From contig NZ_JAIWPJ010000001.1 of NCBI RefSeq assembly GCF_020515625.1, forward strand, positions 868,001 to 932,000: a stretch of DNA of 64,000 nucleotides. The letters are read 5' to 3'. The notes beneath the pieces were generated by a model that saw only the letters and a program-made list of their open reading frames with translations, was not told where the DNA came from and searched no databases. Shown here in pieces: positions 47,830-58,826 of the stretch. Each line of letters opens with the position of its first letter. The stretch's first letter is position 1. Made by a program: the position numbers and the translations under genes. The DNA comes from Natrinema amylolyticum (GTDB lineage: Archaea; Halobacteriota; Halobacteria; Halobacteriales; Natrialbaceae).

Positions 47830-48225
47830 TTACTCCTCGACCCATTCACTCCGGAGTTCGTAATGAGTCACATCGTCGACATCGACCGCCAGCGTGAACT
47901 CCAACGTAATCGTTTCTTCGACGCCGATGAACTCCTTCAGCTTGAGCCCCGATTGGTGAAGTGTTTCGCCGCCGTTGTCTAAGAACGTGCAGACGACTTG
48001 TGGGACCGGAACCTCCGGCGTGATTGGCTCGACCCCCTCGTTTTCGGCTGTCACGTCGACGACGACCTGGGTGCCAGAGTACGTCGCCTGCGTCGAGTAC
48101 TCGTGGGAGAAGACAAGCGACGTTTCGTTTGAGACGACTACCCCGTTGACTCTCGACTCGGAACAGCCTGCAAACAGTGTCCCGCAACCCGCGGCAAGCG
48201 TCCCGAGAACGGCTCGTCGGTGCAT
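47830..48225 (-). CDS. Haloarchaeal lipoprotein of unknown function
   Basis: A 131-residue protein. MHRRAVLGTLAAGCGTLFAGC combines a twin-arginine start with a lipobox ending at Cys21, so it is probably exported by Tat and lipid-anchored. The mature part is one beta-sandwich-like domain (GTQVVVDVTAENEGVEPITP, VEETITLEFTLAVDVDDVTH) of the FxLYD/DUF3426-like type. It stands between the accessory element and the phn operon with no clear link to either. The name of the lipobox fits; function unknown. (Motif quoted over 20 residues only by its key positions RR at 3-4 and C21.). Confidence 0.65.
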   Translation of the reverse strand: MHRRAVLGTLAAGCGTLFAGCSESRVNGVVVSNETSLVFSHEYSTQATYSGTQVVVDVTAENEGVEPITPEVPVPQVVCTFLDNGGETLHQSGLKLKEFIGVEETITLEFTLAVDVDDVTHYELRSEWVEE

Positions 48226-48319: not shown

Positions 48320-48991
48320 TCAGCGCTGTTCGGTCAGTGCTTCGACTAGCGTCTGGAGGTCTGGCACCTCAGCGGTTGGTTCGACTGAGAGGACCACGTC
48401 CGCGACGTGGTCCCGGCGGAGAAAGACCGAGTCGATACCGGCGCGCCGGGCCGCGACGATGTCCTTCTCGGAGTCACCGACGTACAGCGCCTCGTTCGCA
48501 TCCAGGTCCGCCAGCGCCCGCTCGAGATAGTCCGACTCGGGCTTGCGTCGGGCCGCATCTGCGAGCGTCGGCTGTCGACCGTAGGCCGTCCTGAACCCGT
48601 CCAGATCGTAGTGTGCGAGCAGGAACTCGACCGTTGCGTGCTGGTTGTTGCTCACTATCCCGAGGGGTAGGTCTAGCTGTCCGAGCGCCGCGACATCGTC
48701 GTAGACTTGCTTGCCGCCATCCCGGACGTGGGTCTGCTGGGCGAGGCTGGCGGTCAACTCGCGGTGATGCCAGAACGCTTCCGGATCGAGTCCGTGTTCG
48801 CGGGCTGCCTCGATCGGAACGGTATCCTCGGCGACCGTCCGTCGTGCGAACGCACGGTCGATTTCGACGCCGAAGGCTCGAAACGAATCCATGACGGCAT
48901 CGACAAGTACCTCGCGCTCAGTTGGCGCGACCAGCACGCCGTCGTTGTCGAAGACGACGGCATCATAGTCGCCCGCCCATCGATCACTCAT
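48320..48991 (-). CDS. HAD-superfamily phosphatase linked to the phn operon
   Basis: A 223-residue HAD hydrolase with C1 cap. The nucleophile motif is AVVFDNDGVLV, motif II is LGIVSNNQHATVEFL with Ser/Asn, motif III Lys is in RRKPESDYLERAL, and motif IV is ALYVGDSEKDIVAARRAG. The closest pattern is phosphoglycolate phosphatase-like or beta-phosphoglucomutase-like. Its start overlaps the TIM-barrel gene by 8 nt, making it the last gene of the phn operon. A role in processing ribose phosphates made by C-P lyase is likely but not shown. Confidence 0.8.
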   Translation of the reverse strand: MSDRWAGDYDAVVFDNDGVLVAPTEREVLVDAVMDSFRAFGVEIDRAFARRTVAEDTVPIEAAREHGLDPEAFWHHRELTASLAQQTHVRDGGKQVYDDVAALGQLDLPLGIVSNNQHATVEFLLAHYDLDGFRTAYGRQPTLADAARRKPESDYLERALADLDANEALYVGDSEKDIVAARRAGIDSVFLRRDHVADVVLSVEPTAEVPDLQTLVEALTEQR

Positions 48992-49790
48992 GGGCTGTCA
49001 GCTCCGTTTCGGGGGGCGTTTTGTCGGTGCCGACGCTTGTCGCCAGATCGTCGACGGACTTCATCTCGAAAACGAAGTAGTCTGCCGGAATCGCCTCGAC
49101 AACCGACTCGTAGTCGGGTAACGGCTCGTGCTGGTCGGTAGTGCCGTCGTTGTCGTGGAGGTGACAGACCCGGATCCGGTGGCCAAACTCCTCCACGAAC
49201 GCGCGCCAGTCGTAGCCGTTGACCTTCGCGTGTCCCACGTCGAGCGTGACGCCGAGATACTGGGGTGGCACGTCGACGGTATTCCGCATCGACGCGAGAT
49301 CCGCCGGCGTCGTAGTGTAGCGCCGCTTCTGCTCATTGATCGGCTGGTTTTCGAGACACAGCGGCACACCGACCAGTTGAGCGTACTCGGCACACTCCGC
49401 AAGCGAGCGTAGCGCGTTCTGTTTCGCGCGGTCGCGGACCCACTCGGGGTAGCGCTTCGGGACCGACCCACCGTGGACGACGACGGCCCCGGCCCCGGCC
49501 TCGGCAGCGTCATCGAGCGTCCGCTTGACCCGCTTGACGGAGTCCTGCCGGACCACTTCATTATAACTGCCGACGTTCCAGTCTCGGAAGGGCGCGTGGT
49601 AAGTGACACTGACGCCGTAACGGTTGGACAGTTCCCGAATCCGCTCGGGACCGGGCGTCTCCGGATGGCCCGCGAGGTACTCACGTTTGAACTCCACGTG
49701 GTCTAGTCCGAGGTCGGTAACGTAGCGCATGAACTCTTCGACGGTCTCTCCGAAGCGGATGTCCATCGCTGCGCCGACGCTCGGAGTCAT
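48984..49790 (-). CDS. Sugar phosphate isomerase/epimerase-type TIM barrel, phn operon
   Basis: A 268-residue protein of the AP endonuclease 2 / xylose isomerase-like TIM barrel family. Metal-ligand positions are visible: VVVHGGSVPKRYPEW (His), LCLENQPINEQKRRY (Glu), GVTLDVGHAKVNG (Asp, His), VCHLHDNDGTTDQHEPLPD (His, Asp) and a final YFVFEMKS (Glu). It overlaps phnM by 4 nt and the HAD gene by 8 nt. Members act on sugars, sugar phosphates or nucleic acids; here handling of the C-P lyase's phosphoribosyl product is the natural guess. Confidence 0.8.
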   Translation of the reverse strand: MTPSVGAAMDIRFGETVEEFMRYVTDLGLDHVEFKREYLAGHPETPGPERIRELSNRYGVSVTYHAPFRDWNVGSYNEVVRQDSVKRVKRTLDDAAEAGAGAVVVHGGSVPKRYPEWVRDRAKQNALRSLAECAEYAQLVGVPLCLENQPINEQKRRYTTTPADLASMRNTVDVPPQYLGVTLDVGHAKVNGYDWRAFVEEFGHRIRVCHLHDNDGTTDQHEPLPDYESVVEAIPADYFVFEMKSVDDLATSVGTDKTPPETELTAHE

Positions 49791-50950
49791 CGCACCCCCC
49801 GATCGGCGCGGTACACCGGCTGGCCTGCGACGAGAGCGCTGGCGACCGTCGGTGTGGGATCACGGTCAACGAGTAGCAAGTCGGCTCGCGCCTCGACTTC
49901 GATCCGACCGCGGTCGTCGAAACCGACCGCGTCGGCGGGATTGGCGCTGACGCGGTTGACCCGCTCGGGCAGGGGTTCACCGGTGTCGACGAACGCGGCC
50001 GCGAGCAGCGACGGCGGGTGGTAGTCGGCCACGAGGGTGTCGACGACGCCGGCGTCGATGGCGTCGGCCGTCGAGAGGTTGCCCCACTGGCTCTCCCCGC
50101 GGACGAGATTGGGCGCACCCATCGCCGTGGTCATGCCGACTTCGGCGGCGCGCTCGGCCGTCTCCAGCGTGATGGGATACTCCGTGATATCTACCTCCGA
50201 GTCAGCCAGCCGCTCGACCTCCGTCGGGTCCTCATCGTCGTGGGAGGCCGTCACTGCACCGGCGTCGTGAGCGGCCCCGACGACCCGGTCGATGCGCTCG
50301 CGCAGCGTCGCCATCGAGATGTCGCTGCGTTCCTCGATCATCTCTTCCGCCTCCTCGGCCGAGCGGTCGCTGGCGTTCTCGTAGTACCGTTTGAACGCTT
50401 TGATGTCCCGGAACTGGCCCTTGCCTGGGATGTGGCTCATCACCGAGACGAGGTCGGCGTGACCGTCCTCGACGACTTCCAGCACCGCGTCGACGCATTG
50501 CTTCTGGGTGACTTCACAGCGGGCGTGCAGGCGGTGGTCCGCAAGCAGATCGTCGTCGTTGGCGATGGCCGCCGTCAACGTCGCTGCGAGTTCGGGCGAG
50601 CGGTCCTCCGCCTCGTCGCGCTCGAAGGAAATGGCGTGGAACTTCGTCGTGATACCCGCCGAGATGTTTGCACGATCGGCCGAGGCAAGCGCCATCGGTA
50701 GCGCCATTCGAGCGCCCGAACGCGGGTGGAGGTGCCTCTCGATGTCGTCGCCGTGGAGGTCGACCAGGCCGGGCATAATAAGGCGGCCGTCGGCTTCGAT
50801 TACAGTATCGGCGTCGTCGTCGACGACCCCGACTTCGACGATGCGGTCGCCCTCGGTACGAACGCCGCCCTTGAGCACGGCCTCGGGCGTAACGACGCGT
50901 CCGCCAACGACGGCGACACTTTCATCGGTGGTTTGGGCGGTTGAACTCAT
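49787..50950 (-). CDS. phnM: Ribose 1-methylphosphonate 5-triphosphate diphosphatase
   Basis: A 387-residue amidohydrolase-fold protein from the ATG at 50950, in an ATGA overlap with phnL. IMPGLVDLHGDDIERHLHPR carries the metal-binding His/Asp of PhnM, FHAISFERDEAEDRSPE and CEVTQKQCVDAVLEVVEDGH are next, HIPGKGQFRDIKAFKRYYEN is a PhnM hallmark, and TASHDDEDPTEV provides further ligands. The enzyme removes diphosphate from the 5-triphosphate of ribose 1-alkylphosphonate, giving the substrate of PhnJ. Length and order in the operon are normal. Confidence 0.92.
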   Translation of the reverse strand: MSSTAQTTDESVAVVGGRVVTPEAVLKGGVRTEGDRIVEVGVVDDDADTVIEADGRLIMPGLVDLHGDDIERHLHPRSGARMALPMALASADRANISAGITTKFHAISFERDEAEDRSPELAATLTAAIANDDDLLADHRLHARCEVTQKQCVDAVLEVVEDGHADLVSVMSHIPGKGQFRDIKAFKRYYENASDRSAEEAEEMIEERSDISMATLRERIDRVVGAAHDAGAVTASHDDEDPTEVERLADSEVDITEYPITLETAERAAEVGMTTAMGAPNLVRGESQWGNLSTADAIDAGVVDTLVADYHPPSLLAAAFVDTGEPLPERVNRVSANPADAVGFDDRGRIEVEARADLLLVDRDPTPTVASALVAGQPVYRADRGVR

Positions 50951-51684
50951 CCGATCACCACCTCCTCGTCGTACGCCTCGGTGGGGACGACGCGCTGGAG
51001 GCGACCGTCGTCCAAGACGACCACTCGATCCGCGACGGCATCGACCACGTCCGTGTTGTGGAAGACGCCGATGACCGTCGTCTCCGAACCGAGATACGTC
51101 GAAAGGAGGTCGATCGCGGCCTGGCGGGTGTCGGGGTCGAGCGCGCTGGTCGGTTCGTCCAGCAAGAGTAGATCCGGTTTCGGCGCGAGCGCCTGTGCGA
51201 GGTTCACTCGCTGGCGCTCGCCGCCGGAGAAGGTCGCCGGGTATGCCTGCCACAACTCCTCGGGCACCGACAGCGCCGACAGCAGGTCACGAGCAGTCGA
51301 CCGTGCGTCCTCGGGGTCGACCCCCTGTTCGACCAGCGGCCGAGCGACCACGTCGACCGCGGGGACCCGGGGAATCTCGTCGAGGAACTGCGAGGTGTAG
51401 CCGATGCTGTCCCCCCGGAGGTCGATGACCGTCCGGTCAGGACACGAGGCCAGATCGATGTCGCCGTCGGGACCGTGGTAGACGACCTCGCCCGAACTGG
51501 GATCGTAGGTGCGGTACAGACACTTCAACAGCGAGGACTTGCCGCTGCCGGACTCTCCGACGACAGCGAGGAACTCGCTCTCGCGGACGTCGAACGAAAC
51601 ATCGTCGAGGCCGACGACTTGGGTGTCGCCGAGCACGTGCATGTCGAAGGTTTTGGAGAGACCATCGACTGACAGGACTGTCAT
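50947..51684 (-). CDS. phnL: PhnL, ABC-type protein of the C-P lyase complex
   Basis: A 245-residue ABC ATPase. Walker A is GESGSGKSS (about residues 38-46), the signature is FSGGERQRVNLAQAL, and Walker B is PDLLLLDEPTSALD. SIGYTSQFLDEIPRVPAVDV is characteristic of PhnL. With PhnGHI it helps form the ribose 1-phosphonate from ATP and phosphonate. It overlaps phnK and phnM by 4 nt each. Confidence 0.92.
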   Translation of the reverse strand: MTVLSVDGLSKTFDMHVLGDTQVVGLDDVSFDVRESEFLAVVGESGSGKSSLLKCLYRTYDPSSGEVVYHGPDGDIDLASCPDRTVIDLRGDSIGYTSQFLDEIPRVPAVDVVARPLVEQGVDPEDARSTARDLLSALSVPEELWQAYPATFSGGERQRVNLAQALAPKPDLLLLDEPTSALDPDTRQAAIDLLSTYLGSETTVIGVFHNTDVVDAVADRVVVLDDGRLQRVVPTEAYDEEVVIG

Positions 51685-52511
51685 ATGACTGAATTGATGA
51701 GGGTCTGGGTGTACTCGTGGTGCGGGTCTTCCATGATGCGATCGGTGAGACCGGACTCGACGATGCGGCCGTGGCGCATTACGAGCGTCCGATCGGCGAG
51801 TAGGCGGACGACGCTCAGGTCGTGTGAGACCACGATGGCGGCGACGCCTTCTTCCCGCTGGACGCGTCGGAACATGTCCAGTACGCGGGCCTGGACGCTC
51901 ACGTCGAGCCCCGTGGTCGGTTCGTCCAGCACGACCAGGGCTGGGTCGGTCGCCAGCGCGCGGGCGATCTGGACGCGCCGCTGCATCCCCCCGGAGTAGG
52001 TGCTTGTGGGGTCGTCCATCCGAGCGGCCGGGACCTCCGTCTCATCGAAGAGATCCCGAATGCGCGCGCGGACATCCTCGTAGGAGCGCTGGCCGGCCGA
52101 GAGCAGTTTCTCCGCGACGTTGCCGCCGCCGGTAAACTCGAGGTTCAGGCCGTCGCGGATGTGCTGGTGGACGAGCGCGATCTCGCCCGTGCGGAGGTCA
52201 TGGCGCGTTTCGTAGTCCACCTCCAGCAGATTGCCGTCGTGGCCCGCGTAGTTGACCTCGCCGGCAGTTGTAGCGTCGTCATCGCGCTCAAGCGCGAGCA
52301 GTTCTGCGAGGCTGGACTTGCCAGATCCGGACTCGCCGACGATGCCCAACACCTCCCCGGCCTCGACGCTGAGGTCGGCTTCGGCACAGGCGACAACACT
52401 TCCGCAGTGGGGACACTGATTCGTACCCGCGCGGTCACCGGTCGACTCGACACAGCGAGGACAGCCGGGTCCGTAACGCTTCTGCAAGTCGTAAGCTTCC
52501 AGCAGCGTCAT
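51681..52511 (-). CDS. phnK: PhnK, ABC-type protein with an inserted zinc ribbon
   Basis: A 276-residue ABC ATPase from the ATG at 52511, overlapping phnJ by 4 nt. Walker A is GESGSGKS at 59-66; LVHQHIRDGLNLEFTGGGNV, YSGGMQRRVQIARAL and LVVLDEPTTGLDVSVQARVL match PhnK, as does the ending DPHHEYTQTLINSV. Unlike E. coli PhnK, as I recall it, residues 17-36 contain C17-P-R-C20 and C33-P-H-C36, a zinc-ribbon insertion before the first ABC strand pair closes. PhnK docks on the PhnJ part of the core complex. Confidence 0.9.
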   Translation of the reverse strand: MTLLEAYDLQKRYGPGCPRCVESTGDRAGTNQCPHCGSVVACAEADLSVEAGEVLGIVGESGSGKSSLAELLALERDDDATTAGEVNYAGHDGNLLEVDYETRHDLRTGEIALVHQHIRDGLNLEFTGGGNVAEKLLSAGQRSYEDVRARIRDLFDETEVPAARMDDPTSTYSGGMQRRVQIARALATDPALVVLDEPTTGLDVSVQARVLDMFRRVQREEGVAAIVVSHDLSVVRLLADRTLVMRHGRIVESGLTDRIMEDPHHEYTQTLINSVI

Positions 52512-53572
52512 TCTCTGGCACCTCCCTGTTCGGTCGCAGTTCCGGCGCCATCCGCAGCCGTGTCGGGCGTCCCCGGTCCCCAATCGACCTCCTCCTCGAG
52601 GTGATGGTCCTTCGGGAGATCGGGGTTCTTGCGGCGTTTCTCACAGAAACTCGAGTCGTTGCAGGCGTAGCGGGTCTCGAAGGCGTTGTCTCCGTCCTCG
52701 GTGGTCTCCTCTGAGACCTCGACGAGGTAGGTGTCGGTCGACCCGCAGGTGTGACAGGCCTGCTCGGGGAAGCGCTCGACGGTGAACTGCCGGTCGTCGA
52801 AGGCCAGTGGTTCGACCTCAGTGTGCGGCGGGACGGCGTAGATACGCGCCTCCCGGCCCGCAGCCAGTATCGTGAGATGGTCCGCGTGATCGAGTTTCGG
52901 CACGTCCCATCGCGGGATCGGCGAGGGGTCCATCAGATAGCGCCCGGCGACCATCGTCGGATACCGAGAGGAGATCTTAATCTCGCCGTACTCGACGATA
53001 TTTTCGTAAAGGTGGACCCACATTTTCCCATAGTTCTTGTGAGCGTGTCGCCGACGGTTAGCCGCGTCCGAGGGATCGACCTTCCGCAGCGCGTCGGTGA
53101 TCGGAACCTGCAACACCAGGCGCTGTTCATCGGTGAGCACCTCTTCGGGGATGCGGTGGCGACTCTGGATCAGGTCCGCCTCAGTGGTGTCAGTCGTCGT
53201 CGCTACGTCGGCGGTGTTCTCCGCCAGCCGCCGGATGTTGGCGGCGTTGACGCTCTCGTCCGCGCCCTGGTCAATCACTTTGAAGGTGTCCTCGGGACCG
53301 AGGATCGACAGTGAGGTCTGAATACCGCCGGTGCCCCACCCACGGGCCAGCGGCATTGGCCGGGAGGCATAGGGCACCTGATGGCCAGGGATGGCGACGG
53401 CTTTCAGTATCGAGCGTCGGACTTCGCGTTTGGTATGCTCGTCGAGGTACGCGTAATTGTATCCCTCCAGGCCGTCACTGTCTAGGGACTCGAGAGCGGC
53501 GTCGACGGAGTCGGTCGCGACGGGCGTGCCCCCGCCAGGCGATACGTCGTTGGTGGTGGTATGTTCAGTCAT
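52508..53572 (-). CDS. phnJ: C-P lyase, radical SAM enzyme PhnJ
   Basis: A 354-residue protein from the ATG at 53572, overlapping the phnI stop by 8 nt. YNYAYLDEHTKREVRRSILK and AIPGHQVPYASRPMPLARGW are PhnJ hallmarks. The cluster cysteines are C273-x2-C276 and C304, with C310 five residues on (ACNDSSFCEKRR) in the place of the thiyl-radical Cys of E. coli PhnJ. The spacing between C276 and C304 is 27 residues, longer than in E. coli. The enzyme cleaves the carbon-phosphorus bond, releasing an alkane and a ribose cyclic phosphate. Cysteines intact, so likely active. Confidence 0.93.
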   Translation of the reverse strand: MTEHTTTNDVSPGGGTPVATDSVDAALESLDSDGLEGYNYAYLDEHTKREVRRSILKAVAIPGHQVPYASRPMPLARGWGTGGIQTSLSILGPEDTFKVIDQGADESVNAANIRRLAENTADVATTTDTTEADLIQSRHRIPEEVLTDEQRLVLQVPITDALRKVDPSDAANRRRHAHKNYGKMWVHLYENIVEYGEIKISSRYPTMVAGRYLMDPSPIPRWDVPKLDHADHLTILAAGREARIYAVPPHTEVEPLAFDDRQFTVERFPEQACHTCGSTDTYLVEVSEETTEDGDNAFETRYACNDSSFCEKRRKNPDLPKDHHLEEEVDWGPGTPDTAADGAGTATEQGGARE

Positions 53573-54698: not shown

Positions 54699-55244
54699 TC
54701 AGACCACCTCCGTCGTTACCGACCGCGGGAGTGCGGCCACGCGATCCTCGGTGGCAAAGATGGCGTCGACGCCGCGCGGGTAGTCGGACTGGACCGCCAC
54801 GAGCGCGGACAGTTCCGCCTCGGGCAGGGCCACCGACAGTGTTGCCGTCCCGTCGACACCGGGGCCCGAAAGGCTCAGCGTGGTTCCGTCGCCCGCGTCG
54901 TCGTCGAGGGTTTCGACGCGGTAGACGACGGTCGCCCCGTCGCTGGGCTCGGTCAGCGAGCCGCGCTTGCAGTCCCGCACCTCCCAATCGATGTGTTCGC
55001 GGGCGTGGACGATATCCGCCTTCCCGCACGGAGCGCGTTTGAGCCGGCCCTGATCGGTCAGGGCGGCCCGCACGGTCTCGTCGTCGGTCGCCAGCGTCAC
55101 CTCGTGGTCGACGAGGGTCGCCACGACGGCGTGGTCCGCGGGCGCCGGGACGGCGTGGACGGTTCCGGGCCGACTCATCGCCTCCAGTAGCCCGTCGAAC
55201 GTCTGGCGGGTGTCGTGAACGGGATCGATGCCGAGGGCCCTCAC
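54699..55244 (-). CDS. phnH: PhnH, core subunit of C-P lyase complex
   Basis: A 181-residue protein. DPVHDTRQTFDGLLEAMSRP and GTVHAVPAP match the PhnH N-terminus, and SLTEPSDGATVVYRVETL, LSLSGPGVDGTATLSVA and YPRGVDAIFATEDRVAALPR the rest. It dimerises with PhnG/PhnI in the core. It overlaps phnG by 4 nt and abuts phnI. No active-site residues are known for PhnH, so function follows from family and context. Confidence 0.9.
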   Translation of the reverse strand: MRALGIDPVHDTRQTFDGLLEAMSRPGTVHAVPAPADHAVVATLVDHEVTLATDDETVRAALTDQGRLKRAPCGKADIVHAREHIDWEVRDCKRGSLTEPSDGATVVYRVETLDDDAGDGTTLSLSGPGVDGTATLSVALPEAELSALVAVQSDYPRGVDAIFATEDRVAALPRSVTTEVV

Positions 55245-55684
55245 TCTTGGCCCTCCATCGTCTCGAATTCGACGGCTGTGTGTTTGCTTTGGGCCCAGTC
55301 CTGACGTCGCTGTTCGCGCTGACGGGCGGCCACGTCTTCTAGGGTGGCGACGATCGCAGGTGTCTCCTCGTGGCCCGCGGCGACAGCAGCGTCGACGATT
55401 GCGCCCGAGAGCGCGGCCCGTTCGCCCTTGCCCGGCACCATGGCAAAGCCGCGTGTCCCCTCGAGTTCGACCTCCGCGGGTGTCACCAGAACTTCGCCGA
55501 GGTTGAACGGACGACGTTCGACTGGGTCACACACCTGTTGCATCAGTAACTGTGGCCGCGGTTCTTGACGGACCGACAGCGGCGGGTCATCTTCGAGCAC
55601 GTCGTTGGCGAACTGAGCGAGTGTCGCCCCCTCGCAGGAGGCGATCAGCTCGAACCGATCAGATCTATCGTGTGGATCAACCAT
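55241..55684 (-). CDS. phnG: PhnG, core subunit of C-P lyase complex
   Basis: A 147-residue protein from the ATG at 55684; ATGs at 55717 and 55765 are in frame but would make it longer than usual. LMQQVCDPVERRPFNLGEVL and VTPAEVELEGTRGFAMVPGK are PhnG hallmarks, followed by EKGERAAL-like GERAALSGAIVDAAVA. It opens the leftward phn operon phnGHIJKLM plus the TIM-barrel and HAD genes, all with overlapping or touching ends. Confidence 0.9.
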   Translation of the reverse strand: MVDPHDRSDRFELIASCEGATLAQFANDVLEDDPPLSVRQEPRPQLLMQQVCDPVERRPFNLGEVLVTPAEVELEGTRGFAMVPGKGERAALSGAIVDAAVAAGHEETPAIVATLEDVAARQREQRRQDWAQSKHTAVEFETMEGQE

Positions 55685-55754
55685 ACACTCGGTCGAAACA
55701 CGTCCAAACGACTGCATAAGAATTCTCTCGGTACTCTCTATGGCTCGCTCGCCT

Positions 55755-55777
55755 TCGGGGTTCATTCCTTACCCCGA
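55755..55777. promoter_or_regulatory. Dyad in the divergent phn promoter region
   Basis: TCGGGG (55755-55760) and CCCCGA (55772-55777) form a perfect 6-bp inverted repeat with an 11-bp spacer. It lies midway between the phnG and phnD starts (226 bp apart), a good place for one regulator to control both operons. No phnF-type regulator gene is present; control by phosphate status is possible. Confidence 0.4.
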
Positions 55778-55909
55778 GATACAAAGTACAGACGAGTACG
55801 GACTATCGACTTCAGTATCGTATCGAACCGGGAAGATCGGCGCCCACTACGGACGATTCGGACTCTATACAGCCAATCGTTATTCGACCCATCTTCCAGA
55901 AATGAGTTG

Positions 55910-56938
55910 ATGTCCGAGGAGCCGACCGACGACGGTTCAGGGGTATCGACACCGAACAACAGTCCCGATTCGGGATTGACTGGGCGACGAAAGTTCATCG
56001 CCGGCAGCGCTACGCTTGCTGCCACCGCAGGACTTTCGGGATGTTTGGGTCTCAGCAGCGGTAGTAACTCTGGTGCCGAGACCATCACGATGCTACTGAC
56101 ACCGGGCACGCCGGCCGACGCCCGGCGGCGGTACAAGCCGGTCCAAAACCTCCTCAACGGCGAGGTCGACGGCGTCGACATCGAGATGCAGGTCCCGACA
56201 GACTACTCGGCGATCCGACCCGCCCTCGAAAGCGAGCAGGCCGAGATCGGGATGGACGACATCACGCTCCTCTCAAAGCCCGATATCATGGACGTTTACG
56301 GGACGACTGTGACGGGCGGTTCGGCGTTCTACTTCTCGCTAATGCTGGTCCAGCCGGGATCGGATATCCAGGAACGCACTGACATCGAAGGCAAGGAGTG
56401 GGCCTTCGCCGATCGGCTCTCGACCAGCGGATCCATCTTCGCGCTGTACACGCTCCAAGAAGCGGGACTCGACATTGGCGACGCGCCGAAGGAAGACCCC
56501 GTCGACTTCGACGCGACGTTCACCGACCACGATCAGGCGCTTCAGCGTCTCGCCAACGGCGAAGCCGTCGGCGCGACCACCTGGGGCGGCAACGGTATCC
56601 CGCACCTGCCCGAGGGAACCGAGGTTCCCGACCGCGTCGACGAAAAGAGCTCCTTCCTCGACACGATGGGCACCGAGACGCCCCAGTTCGAGCCGATCTG
56701 GTGGTCGTTCCCGATTCCGAAACAGCCGATGTATGCACGCAGTAGCTGGGAGTCCGATAAGAAAGAGGAGATCGGCGAGGTGCTGCGCAACTCCGATCAG
56801 GACCTGATCGAGCAATACTACCCCGAGGACTACGACGACGAGGAACTGCCGTTTACCACGCTGAGAGACACCTCGATCGAGGACTACAAGCCGGTCATCG
56901 AGCGTATGAACACCGTTGGTATCGATCCGGCGGCCTGA
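55910..56938 (+). CDS. phnD: Phosphonate-binding lipoprotein of ABC transporter
   Basis: A 342-residue protein from the ATG at 55910. A Tat-type start with GRRKFIAGSATLAATAGLSG followed by Cys43 gives a lipobox anchor, normal for haloarchaeal binding proteins. The mature part is a PhnD/phosphonate-binding domain: LLTPGTPADARRRYKPVQNL, MQVPTDYSAIRPALESEQAE, WAFADRLSTSGSIFALYTLQ and AVGATTWGGNGIPHLPEG. It captures phosphonate or phosphite outside the cell and passes it to PhnE. It is transcribed divergently from phnG. Confidence 0.92.
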   Translation: MSEEPTDDGSGVSTPNNSPDSGLTGRRKFIAGSATLAATAGLSGCLGLSSGSNSGAETITMLLTPGTPADARRRYKPVQNLLNGEVDGVDIEMQVPTDYSAIRPALESEQAEIGMDDITLLSKPDIMDVYGTTVTGGSAFYFSLMLVQPGSDIQERTDIEGKEWAFADRLSTSGSIFALYTLQEAGLDIGDAPKEDPVDFDATFTDHDQALQRLANGEAVGATTWGGNGIPHLPEGTEVPDRVDEKSSFLDTMGTETPQFEPIWWSFPIPKQPMYARSSWESDKKEEIGEVLRNSDQDLIEQYYPEDYDDEELPFTTLRDTSIEDYKPVIERMNTVGIDPAA

Positions 56939-56964
56939 CCGCCCGACACCCAGTTTTCAACACA

Positions 56965-57798
56965 ATGAGCACACTCAAAGTCGAGAACCTGTCGAAACAG
57001 TACGGGGACGTGACGGCTCTGGAAGACGTGTCCTTCGAGATAGAAGACGAGTTCGCCGTCCTGCTGGGCGAGTCCGGGGCTGGCAAGTCAACGCTACTGC
57101 GGTGTATCAATGGGCTGACCGAGCCGACCGAGGGGAGCATCTACCTTGACGACGAGGTGATCTCGAGATCGCAGACCGACATTGGTATGATCTTCCAGCA
57201 GCACAACCTCGTCGACGGTGTCTCGGCGTACCTCAACGCACTTACGGGCTCTCTCAACCGCGTCTCGATGCTCAAGAGTATGCTCCAGTGGCAGTCCCGC
57301 GAGGACAAACTCCGCGCGCTGGAGGCGCTCGAAACCGTCGGCCTCCTGGACGAGAGCCATCAACGGGTCTCCCAGATGTCTGGCGGCCAGCAGCAACGCG
57401 TCGGCATTGCCCGTGCGCTCGTTCAGGACCCGCGGTTGCTGCTGGCGGACGAGCCGGTTGCGAGCCTCGATCCCTCCAGCGCCGAGACGGTGATGGGGTA
57501 TCTCCGGAAGGCTGCCAAGCAACACGACGTGACCGCGCTGGTGAGCCTCCACCAAGTCAACATCGCCGCTCACTTCGGCGACCGGTTCATCGGCCTTCGC
57601 GACGGCCAGAAACTGTTCGATGTCCGACGTGATGAACTCACGCCTGAACTGATCGACGAATTGTACGGGAGCGTCGAGACCGTCGGCTTAGCCGAGCAGG
57701 AGGATACTGTCGAGGACGCTCTCGATGCCATCGACGACGACTCCGACGACCCTGACGAGGGCGCGGTCGAAGGCGTCCAGCGAGGGATCGAAGCATGA
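56965..57798 (+). CDS. phnC: Phosphonate ABC transporter ATPase
   Basis: A 277-residue ATPase. Walker A is GESGAGKSTLLRCINGLTEP, the Q-loop follows GMIFQQHNLVDGVSAYLNAL, the signature is MSGGQQQRVGIARAL, Walker B is LLLADEPVASLDP, and VSLHQVNIAAHFGDRFIGLR has the switch His. These match PhnC closely. The C-terminal 45 residues are very acidic (DDDSDDPDEGAVEGVQRG), an adaptation to high salt. It overlaps phnE by 4 nt. Confidence 0.93.
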   Translation: MSTLKVENLSKQYGDVTALEDVSFEIEDEFAVLLGESGAGKSTLLRCINGLTEPTEGSIYLDDEVISRSQTDIGMIFQQHNLVDGVSAYLNALTGSLNRVSMLKSMLQWQSREDKLRALEALETVGLLDESHQRVSQMSGGQQQRVGIARALVQDPRLLLADEPVASLDPSSAETVMGYLRKAAKQHDVTALVSLHQVNIAAHFGDRFIGLRDGQKLFDVRRDELTPELIDELYGSVETVGLAEQEDTVEDALDAIDDDSDDPDEGAVEGVQRGIEA

Positions 57799-58826
57799 GT
57801 ACGCCGCCGTCCGAAGGAGAGTCTCTCGCGGCCTACTTTGGGTACGAGGAGACCGGCGACTCGCCGGCCGAACAGAAACTTCAGGATATGAAGCGCCGCA
57901 AGACTCGGCGGCGGCTCTGGACGCTAGCCGGGCTGATCGCTACTGGTCTGCTGTTCTACGCTAGCCTCCGCGTCATCGAGTTCAATCTCGCGGAACTGGT
58001 CGGCCAGCTCGGCCAGTTCTACGAGGCGCTGCTGGAGTACTTTCCGCCAACGACGTACTTCGGCATCCCATTTGTCGATCTGGGCGCCTACGTGAGCTTC
58101 ATAATCGAAGAGAACCTGATCCTCACGGTCGAGGGAGGCCAGATCGTCTGGGGCGCGATGTTCGTCACGATGGCTGTGGCGTTCGCCGGGACAGTGCTAG
58201 GCCTGCCACTGGCGCTGTTTTTCGGCATTATGTCCAGCGAGCGGGTCATCCCATACCCGTTCAACTTCGTCTTCCGCGGGACGATGAGCCTCATCCGTGC
58301 CATCCCCGGGCTAGTGTGGTTTTTGATCCTGATTCCGCTCGCGGGCGTCACCCCCTTTACCGGCGCGCTGGCGATCATGGTCGACACCACGGGCTACTTG
58401 GGGCGGCTGTTCACCGACGAGCTCGAGGAGATCGAGGATGGCCCTATCGAGGGGATTCGCTCGACCGGGGCGAACCGATCACAGATCGTTTCCTTCGGCA
58501 TGCTGAGCCAAGTGTTCCGGCAGTTCATCGCTTGGATCGCTTTCGACCTCGAACACAACGTTCGGGCCGCCATCGGCCTGGGGATCATCGGTGCCGGCGG
58601 CCTGGGGCTGGAGCTGTACATCCAGCGTCAGACGTTCAACTACACGGAGATGATGGCCTGTATCATCCTCATCTTCCTGCTGGCCGGCTCAGTCGAATTG
58701 GTCAGCCAGCGCGTCCGCTCAACCCTCCGCGATGACGACGATGTCGAGAAGTCGGGCATCATCGAGGCATTCGCCAACGCGCCGAAGAATATCCTCGCCT
58801 CGACGATGGGGCGACGCGGACAATGA
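57795..58826 (+). CDS. phnE: Phosphonate ABC transporter permease
   Basis: A 343-residue permease with six or seven membrane helices. The coupling-helix motif is [20 protein letters not shown], typical of PhnE, with [20 protein letters not shown] next to it. A basic N-terminus ([13 protein letters not shown]) leads to the first helix. It is a single permease gene, so the transporter is likely a homodimer. It overlaps the acetyltransferase gene by 4 nt. Confidence 0.92.

What the first reader, a model, noticed from the sequence alone, without database searches (positions are those of the whole stretch)
48320..49790. TIM-barrel and HAD enzymes wired into the C-P lyase operon, with PhnN and PhnP absent
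In bacteria the cyclic ribose phosphate made by PhnJ is opened by PhnP and recycled with PhnN. Neither gene is in this window, nor is phnF. Instead a metal-site TIM barrel and a HAD phosphatase are joined to phnM by 4- and 8-nt overlaps. I infer that they open and dephosphorylate the phosphoribosyl product by a different route, which would be a new branch of phosphonate use.
Basis: partly seen in the sequence, partly recalled or inferred. Interest (0 to 1): 0.65.

Follow-up and report, generated by a model that had tools for sequence, protein, structure and literature searches.

The report
Archaeal C-P lyase TIM-barrel diesterase candidate
Salt-loving archaea that break down phosphonates lack the usual enzyme (PhnP) that opens the cyclic sugar-phosphate left by C-P lyase; in its place every operon found carries a gene for a metal-dependent TIM barrel with the metal site of the DNA-repair phosphodiesterase endonuclease IV, a strong but untested candidate for the missing ring-opening enzyme.

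Summary
In this Natrinema-like haloarchaeal genome a TIM barrel (48984-49790, -) and a HAD phosphatase (48320-48991, -) follow phnM with 4- and 8-nt overlaps, and PhnP and PhnN are absent genome-wide as family members. The two genes are not equal partners. The TIM gene follows phnM in all 50 resolvable haloarchaeal loci (exact 4-nt overlap in 45), all 38 PhnJ-positive genomes of 391 searched carry it, and its sequence co-diverges with the core phn genes. The HAD gene is present in only about half. The TIM barrel is annotated 'sugar phosphate isomerase/epimerase', but all nine zinc ligands of endonuclease IV are invariant in it (35/35), and E. coli isomerases of the same fold lack several of them. 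A second archaeal lineage has an only 23%-identical TIM barrel with the same nine ligands, also right after phnM. Best reading: the TIM barrel opens 5-phosphoribosyl 1,2-cyclic phosphate in place of PhnP; the HAD, R15P isomerase or other phosphatases then handle the monoester. The absence of phnNOP in haloarchaea was published; I found no paper naming the replacement. No enzyme activity has been shown.

The parts
48984..49790 (-). AP_endonuc_2 (xylose isomerase-like) TIM barrel, 268 aa; proposed 5-phosphoribosyl 1,2-cyclic phosphate diesterase. Nine endonuclease IV-type zinc ligands: H65, H106, E147, D184, H187, H210, D219, H221, E242
   Evidence: PF01261 115 bits; ligands invariant in 35/35 phn-linked relatives and matched to E. 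coli Nfo; AF2 model pLDDT 91.9; directly after phnM in 50/50 loci
48320..48991 (-). HAD-superfamily (subfamily I) phosphatase, 223 aa; proposed sugar-phosphate monoesterase, optional component
   Evidence: PF13419; catalytic D15, D17, S114, K150, D173, D177 conserved; AF2 pLDDT 91.6; present after TIM in about half of the operons
49787..50950 (-). phnM, triphosphate diphosphohydrolase; upstream translational-coupling partner of TIM (start by 4-nt overlap with phnL, approximate)
   Evidence: NF011990 435.6 bits
50947..51684 (-). phnL
   Evidence: TIGR02324 235 bits, just below its cut-off 256
51681..52511 (-). phnK (start approximate)
   Evidence: TIGR02323 212 bits, below cut-off 303; syntenic in all loci
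52508..53566 (-). phnJ, radical SAM C-P lyase (start approximate)
   Evidence: PF06007 434.6 bits
53565..54698 (-). phnI
   Evidence: PF05861 452 bits
54699..55244 (-). phnH
   Evidence: TIGR03292 150 bits, over cut-off
55241..55765 (-). phnG
   Evidence: TIGR03293 110 bits, over cut-off
55865..58826 (+). divergent phnD-phnC-phnE-like transporter genes, conserved opposite phnG in most loci
   Evidence: tblastn synteny

Best explanation
The TIM barrel is a tri-metal phosphodiesterase that replaces PhnP. It hydrolyses the 1,2-cyclic phosphate of 5-phospho-alpha-D-ribosyl 1,2-cyclic phosphate, the PhnJ product, giving a ribose bisphosphate (probably ribose 1,5-bisphosphate, R15P). Because PhnN is absent, R15P is not made into PRPP by PhnN. 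It is instead dephosphorylated by the operon HAD where present (releasing the phosphonate-derived phosphate directly), or isomerised by R15P isomerase and fed into the haloarchaeal pentose bisphosphate pathway where that exists, or handled by another phosphatase. Endonuclease IV has both diesterase and 3'-phosphatase activity (general knowledge), so the TIM barrel might take both steps in species with neither partner. Shown: presence, universality, translational coupling, co-divergence, conserved metal ligands, absence of PhnP/PhnN family members. Inferred: substrate, reaction, product fate and the role of the HAD.
For: TIM relative in 38/38 PhnJ-positive of 391 Halobacteria genomes, and after phnM in 50/50 loci with a 4-nt overlap in 45; all 32 named GTDB loci agree. 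Co-divergence with phnL r=0.85, phnI 0.83, phnM 0.82, against 0.41 for the transporter phnC. All nine Nfo zinc ligands conserved 35/35; E. coli UlaE, YcjR and Hyi lack the H106, D219 and H221 equivalents. Closest curated family is the phosphodiesterase CbiR. A 23%-identical TIM barrel with the same ligands follows phnM in an archaeon outside Halobacteria, in a genome with no credible PhnP. No PhnP or PhnN family member in the phnJ+ genomes. R15P isomerase in the window's genome, 450 bits, over cut-off. Haloarchaeal R15P pathway: PMC9700705.
Against: No activity data. Fold comparison alone ranks sugar epimerases as high as endonuclease IV, and profile-profile match to Nfo is weak, so function rests on ligands and context. 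R15P isomerase is present in only 19/38 phnJ+ genomes and is no commoner there than in phnJ- ones (26/40); seven phnJ+ genomes have neither it nor the operon HAD, so the fate of the product is unclear. A universal remote PhnP homolog exists in the genome. Related TIM barrels with the same ligands exist in genomes without phn, so the ligand set does not fix the substrate.
Confidence: 0.66

Rival explanations
1. The TIM barrel is a sugar-phosphate isomerase or epimerase, as annotated, acting on the ribose moiety after some other enzyme opens the ring; for example it converts ribose bisphosphate or ribose 5-phosphate to another pentose phosphate.
For: RefSeq annotation 'sugar phosphate isomerase/epimerase'; best Foldseek and VIA matches include many epimerases; half of phnJ+ genomes lack R15P isomerase.
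Against: The full tri-zinc ligand set, including H106, D219 and H221 that the three E. coli isomerases tested do not have, is invariant in 35/35. Best curated family is the phosphodiesterase CbiR. It would leave the ring-opening step without a gene in the operon.
Confidence: 0.14
2. Ring opening is done by the universal COG1235-like metallo-beta-lactamase encoded elsewhere (L001 protein, 276 aa), a remote PhnP homolog, and the TIM barrel does something else in the pathway.
For: Same superfamily as PhnP, 51.5 bits, in all 78 genomes.
Against: Present equally in 40 genomes without PhnJ and in Haloferax volcanii and Methanocaldococcus controls; far under the PhnP cut-off and closer to other MBL families; never near phn genes in the loci examined.
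Confidence: 0.1
3. The TIM barrel processes a side group or a different phosphonate-derived diester (substrate tailoring) rather than the PhnJ product, like CbiR cutting the cobamide nucleotide loop.
For: Relatives with the same ligands occur without phn beside a ComB-like gene and an ECF-type transporter, and CbiR is the nearest characterised family.
Against: Strict universality and coupling to phnM across all haloarchaeal C-P lyase loci, and the lack of any PhnP, fit a core step better than an accessory one.
Confidence: 0.1

Closest known systems
PhnP (metallo-beta-lactamase fold, TIGR03307), E. coli phnN-phnP route
   Same: Proposed reaction: opening of 5-phosphoribosyl 1,2-cyclic phosphate; gene in the C-P lyase operon after phnM.
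   Different: Unrelated fold and sequence; no PhnN partner.
RcsF, 2H phosphoesterase in bacterial phn clusters lacking phnP (PMC3840354, PMC10574752)
   Same: A non-homologous candidate replacement for PhnP, inferred mainly from gene context.
   Different: 2H fold versus metal-dependent TIM barrel; bacterial versus archaeal.
Elen0235, PHP-family cyclic phosphodiesterase of Eggerthella lenta (from general knowledge, not tested here)
   Same: Metal-dependent hydrolase reported to act on cyclic phosphates and to break both ester bonds; a model for a one-enzyme route to ribose 5-phosphate plus phosphate.
   Different: PHP superfamily, not AP_endonuc_2.
Endonuclease IV (Nfo)
   Same: TIM barrel with the same nine zinc ligands.
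   Different: TIM scores 44.8 bits against the 244-bit cut-off of the nearest deoxyribonuclease IV model; phn operon context.
CbiR, cobamide-remodelling phosphodiesterase (PMC7733943)
   Same: AP_endonuc_2 superfamily metal-dependent phosphodiesterase, a precedent for small-molecule diesters.
   Different: 66.2 bits against a cut-off of 105; no cobamide genes in the operon.
MJ1311 of Methanocaldococcus (PDB 3wqo, 'D-tagatose 3-epimerase-like', uncharacterised)
   Same: Closest solved structure: Z 28.2, rmsd 2.7 over 246 residues, 28% identity; aligned metal residues shared.
   Different: Its organism gave no PhnJ match in the control search; function unknown.

Membership tests
AP_endonuc_2 / xylose isomerase-like TIM barrel superfamily (PF01261) | Pfam gathering score and TIM-barrel fold | tested here: met
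   115.1 bits against 31.1; AF2 model pLDDT 91.9 matches superfamily structures
Tri-zinc phosphodiesterase site as in endonuclease IV | Nine ligands H69 H109 E145 D179 H182 H216 D229 H231 E261 (Nfo numbering) | tested here: met
   H65 H106 E147 D184 H187 H210 D219 H221 E242 invariant in 35/35; E. coli Nfo aligned as control. H65/H69 fall in a gapped loop, so that one match is by motif, not by column
Deoxyribonuclease IV | NCBIfam equivalog or subfamily cut-off | tested here: not met
   44.8 against 244 (NF002198) and 24.4 against 129.65 (TIGR00587)
CbiR | NF041277 cut-off | tested here: not met
   66.2 against 105 bits
PhnP | TIGR03307 cut-off, metallo-beta-lactamase fold | tested here: not met
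   TIM is another fold; best PhnP hit in the genome is 51.5 against 272.25 bits; 0/78 genomes over cut-off
PhnP functional equivalent | Hydrolysis of 5-phosphoribosyl 1,2-cyclic phosphate | not testable with these tools
   needs an enzyme assay
C-P lyase operon | phnGHIJKLM core set present and collinear | tested here: met
PhnN-type PRPP salvage of ribose 1,5-bisphosphate | PhnN family member in the genome | tested here: not met
   no match in the genome; 0/41 genomes over cut-off
Haloarchaeal non-carboxylating pentose bisphosphate pathway (PMC9700705) | R15P isomerase in the genome | tested here: met
   450.5 bits, over cut-off 314.1, in the window's genome; but only 19/38 phnJ+ genomes. The other enzymes of that pathway were not tested
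HAD subfamily I phosphatase | DxD, S/T, K and acidic motif IV | tested here: met
   D15, D17, S114, K150, D173, D177 invariant in the 10-row alignment

The most novel reading that the evidence does not exclude
Archaeal C-P lyase uses a fourth, unrelated class of 5-phosphoribosyl 1,2-cyclic phosphate diesterase, an endonuclease IV-type tri-zinc TIM barrel, recruited at least twice in Archaea (or once, deeply diverged), so that phosphonate phosphorus is released as phosphate or routed through ribose 1,5-bisphosphate without PhnN and PRPP.
Probability: 0.55. Interest if true: 0.68.

Novelty: new variant of a known kind. Interest (0 to 1): 0.58.

Why it matters
A recent review (PMC10574752) notes that archaeal C-P lyase operons lack phnNOP and that there are no published data on archaeal phosphonate consumption. 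This gives a single, testable gene for the missing step, corrects a database annotation ('sugar phosphate isomerase/epimerase') across Halobacteria, and would add another case of non-orthologous replacement at the same step of an aerobic-methane-producing pathway that operates in hypersaline waters. It also offers a marker (phnM-TIM) for complete archaeal phosphonate use.

Tried and rejected
PhnP or PhnN hidden elsewhere: none over cut-off. HAD as an essential partner: rejected, absent from about half of the loci and broken by a frameshift or stop in some. R15P isomerase as the obligatory sink: rejected, 19/38 phnJ+ against 26/40 phnJ-. HAD compensating for lack of R15P isomerase: trend only, 7/18 against 12/19, Fisher p=0.19. 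Thermus TIM link: the Thermus phn operon has neither TIM nor PhnP. Bacterial plasmids: 215 records with PhnJ, but close TIM relatives only in 11 haloarchaeal records, so the association was not seen in bacteria at that sensitivity; bacterial chromosomes could not be searched. Fold comparison did not separate diesterase from epimerase. hhalign to single Nfo or UlaE sequences was weak and uninformative. Agrobacterium TIM relatives of the L132 protein lie near glycerophosphodiester phosphodiesterase genes; suggestive, not pursued. Paper searches combining C-P lyase, phnM and TIM barrel or sugar phosphate isomerase gave nothing on this link; the library holds open-licence papers only.

Full report
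What is there. The window lies in a 4.71-Mb haloarchaeal genome (G000:C1:868001-932000); the nearest named relatives of this operon are Natrinema. On the minus strand phnG, H, I, J, K, L and M run from 55765 to about 49787, followed by the TIM-barrel gene (48984-49790) and the HAD gene (48320-48991). The 4-nt and 8-nt overlaps are exact. Family scans confirm phnG-M. A divergent phnDCE-like transporter lies on the other side, as in nearly all relatives.

Is it more than chance. PhnJ occurs in 38 of 391 Halobacteria genomes. Every one of these has a TIM relative; in three of them contig ends or rearrangement split the operon (G299, G313, G345). In 50 loci where phnM and TIM could both be read, TIM follows phnM on the same strand, with an exact 4-nt overlap in 45. 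Thirty-two independently fetched named GTDB loci, all Halobacteria, show the same order, as does a Haloferax alexandrinus plasmid. TIM distances correlate with phnL (0.85), phnI (0.83), phnM (0.82) and phnH (0.81), but only 0.41 with the transporter ATPase phnC. The HAD gene follows TIM in about half of the loci only, and is broken in some.

What the TIM barrel is. It belongs to PF01261. Its best curated relatives are the phosphodiesterase CbiR and deoxyribonuclease IV, both well below cut-off. The AlphaFold model is confident (pLDDT 91.9) and closest to MJ1311 (PDB 3wqo; Z 28.2, rmsd 2.7 over 246 residues). Fold alone does not tell a diesterase from an epimerase, since both rank highly. The metal site does. 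All nine endonuclease IV zinc ligands are present and invariant in 35 of 35 phn-linked relatives (H65, H106, E147, D184, H187, H210, D219, H221, E242). E. coli Nfo was aligned as a positive control and E. coli UlaE, YcjR and Hyi as negative controls; these three lack the H106, D219 and H221 equivalents. H65 pairs with Nfo H69 by motif in a gapped loop rather than by column.

Missing genes. No genome of 78 has a PhnP over the family cut-off. The roughly 50-bit metallo-beta-lactamase in the window's genome has counterparts in all 78, including 40 without PhnJ, and it is closer to other MBL families than to PhnP. PhnN is absent from the window's genome, and no member is over cut-off in 41 phnJ+ genomes. 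R15P isomerase is in the window's genome, but in only 19 of 38 phnJ+ genomes; seven have neither it nor the operon HAD.

A second case. In an archaeon of the same phylum but outside Halobacteria (G397, L132), the gene right after phnM is another PF01261-type protein, 23% identical over 188 residues to the window's, with the same nine ligands. That genome has no credible PhnP (26.9 bits). This is either an independent recruitment or an old, deeply diverged association; the tree places that protein on a very long branch, so I cannot say which. It rests on one draft genome.

The family outside phn. A sister clade (20 of 20 with all nine ligands; one branch with support 99/84) lives in genomes mostly without phn. 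In most loci read it lies beside a ComB-like (2-phosphosulfolactate phosphatase family) gene, an ECF-type transporter, or both. Its substrate is unknown. It again pairs a presumed diesterase with a presumed phosphatase, as TIM and HAD do.

How it most likely works. PhnJ releases 5-phosphoribosyl 1,2-cyclic phosphate (established for E. coli; PMC3840354, PMC10574752). I propose that the TIM barrel hydrolyses one P-O bond at a tri-metal centre, giving a ribose bisphosphate. The HAD, where present, removes a phosphate; where R15P isomerase is present the bisphosphate can enter the haloarchaeal pentose bisphosphate pathway (PMC9700705). In species with neither, the TIM barrel itself or another phosphatase must act. 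The ring-opening role is inferred from ligands, universality and the gap it fills; the rest is weaker.

What was known. The review PMC10574752 states that Haloquadratum walsbyi and Natronomonas moolapensis lack phnNOP and phnF, that PhnP is replaced by rcsF in some bacteria, and that there are no published data on archaeal phosphonate consumption. I found no paper linking a TIM barrel to archaeal C-P lyase, within an open-licence library only. Public annotation calls the gene a sugar phosphate isomerase/epimerase.

Verdict. It is a new variant of a known kind.

Noticed in passing
L070-L089 (for example L127:6989-7774): A sister clade of the TIM barrel, with all nine metal ligands, sits in mostly phn-less Halobacteria, in most loci beside a ComB-like (2-phosphosulfolactate phosphatase family) gene and/or an ECF-type transporter; substrate unknown.
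   Followed up: partly
L132:428-1339: A highly diverged PF01261 TIM barrel directly after phnM in a small-genome archaeon (G397) outside Halobacteria.
   Followed up: partly
L138:11522-12322: An Arthrobacter plasmid phn operon lacks phnN and phnP but has an inositol-monophosphatase-family gene overlapping the end of phnM, perhaps another replacement.
   Followed up: no
L125:8013-13442: A Thermus thermophilus plasmid C-P lyase operon has neither phnN, phnP nor a TIM barrel.
   Followed up: no
L136:5959-6855: An Agrobacterium plasmid TIM barrel, 28% identical to the L132 protein, lies near two glycerophosphodiester phosphodiesterase-family genes and an inositol-monophosphatase-family gene.
   Followed up: no
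window 47830-48225: A small lipoprotein-like ORF (131 aa, twin-Arg-like start and C-A-G-C lipobox) after the HAD gene; similar ORFs follow HAD in several relatives (L053, L055, L058-L060, L064).
   Followed up: no
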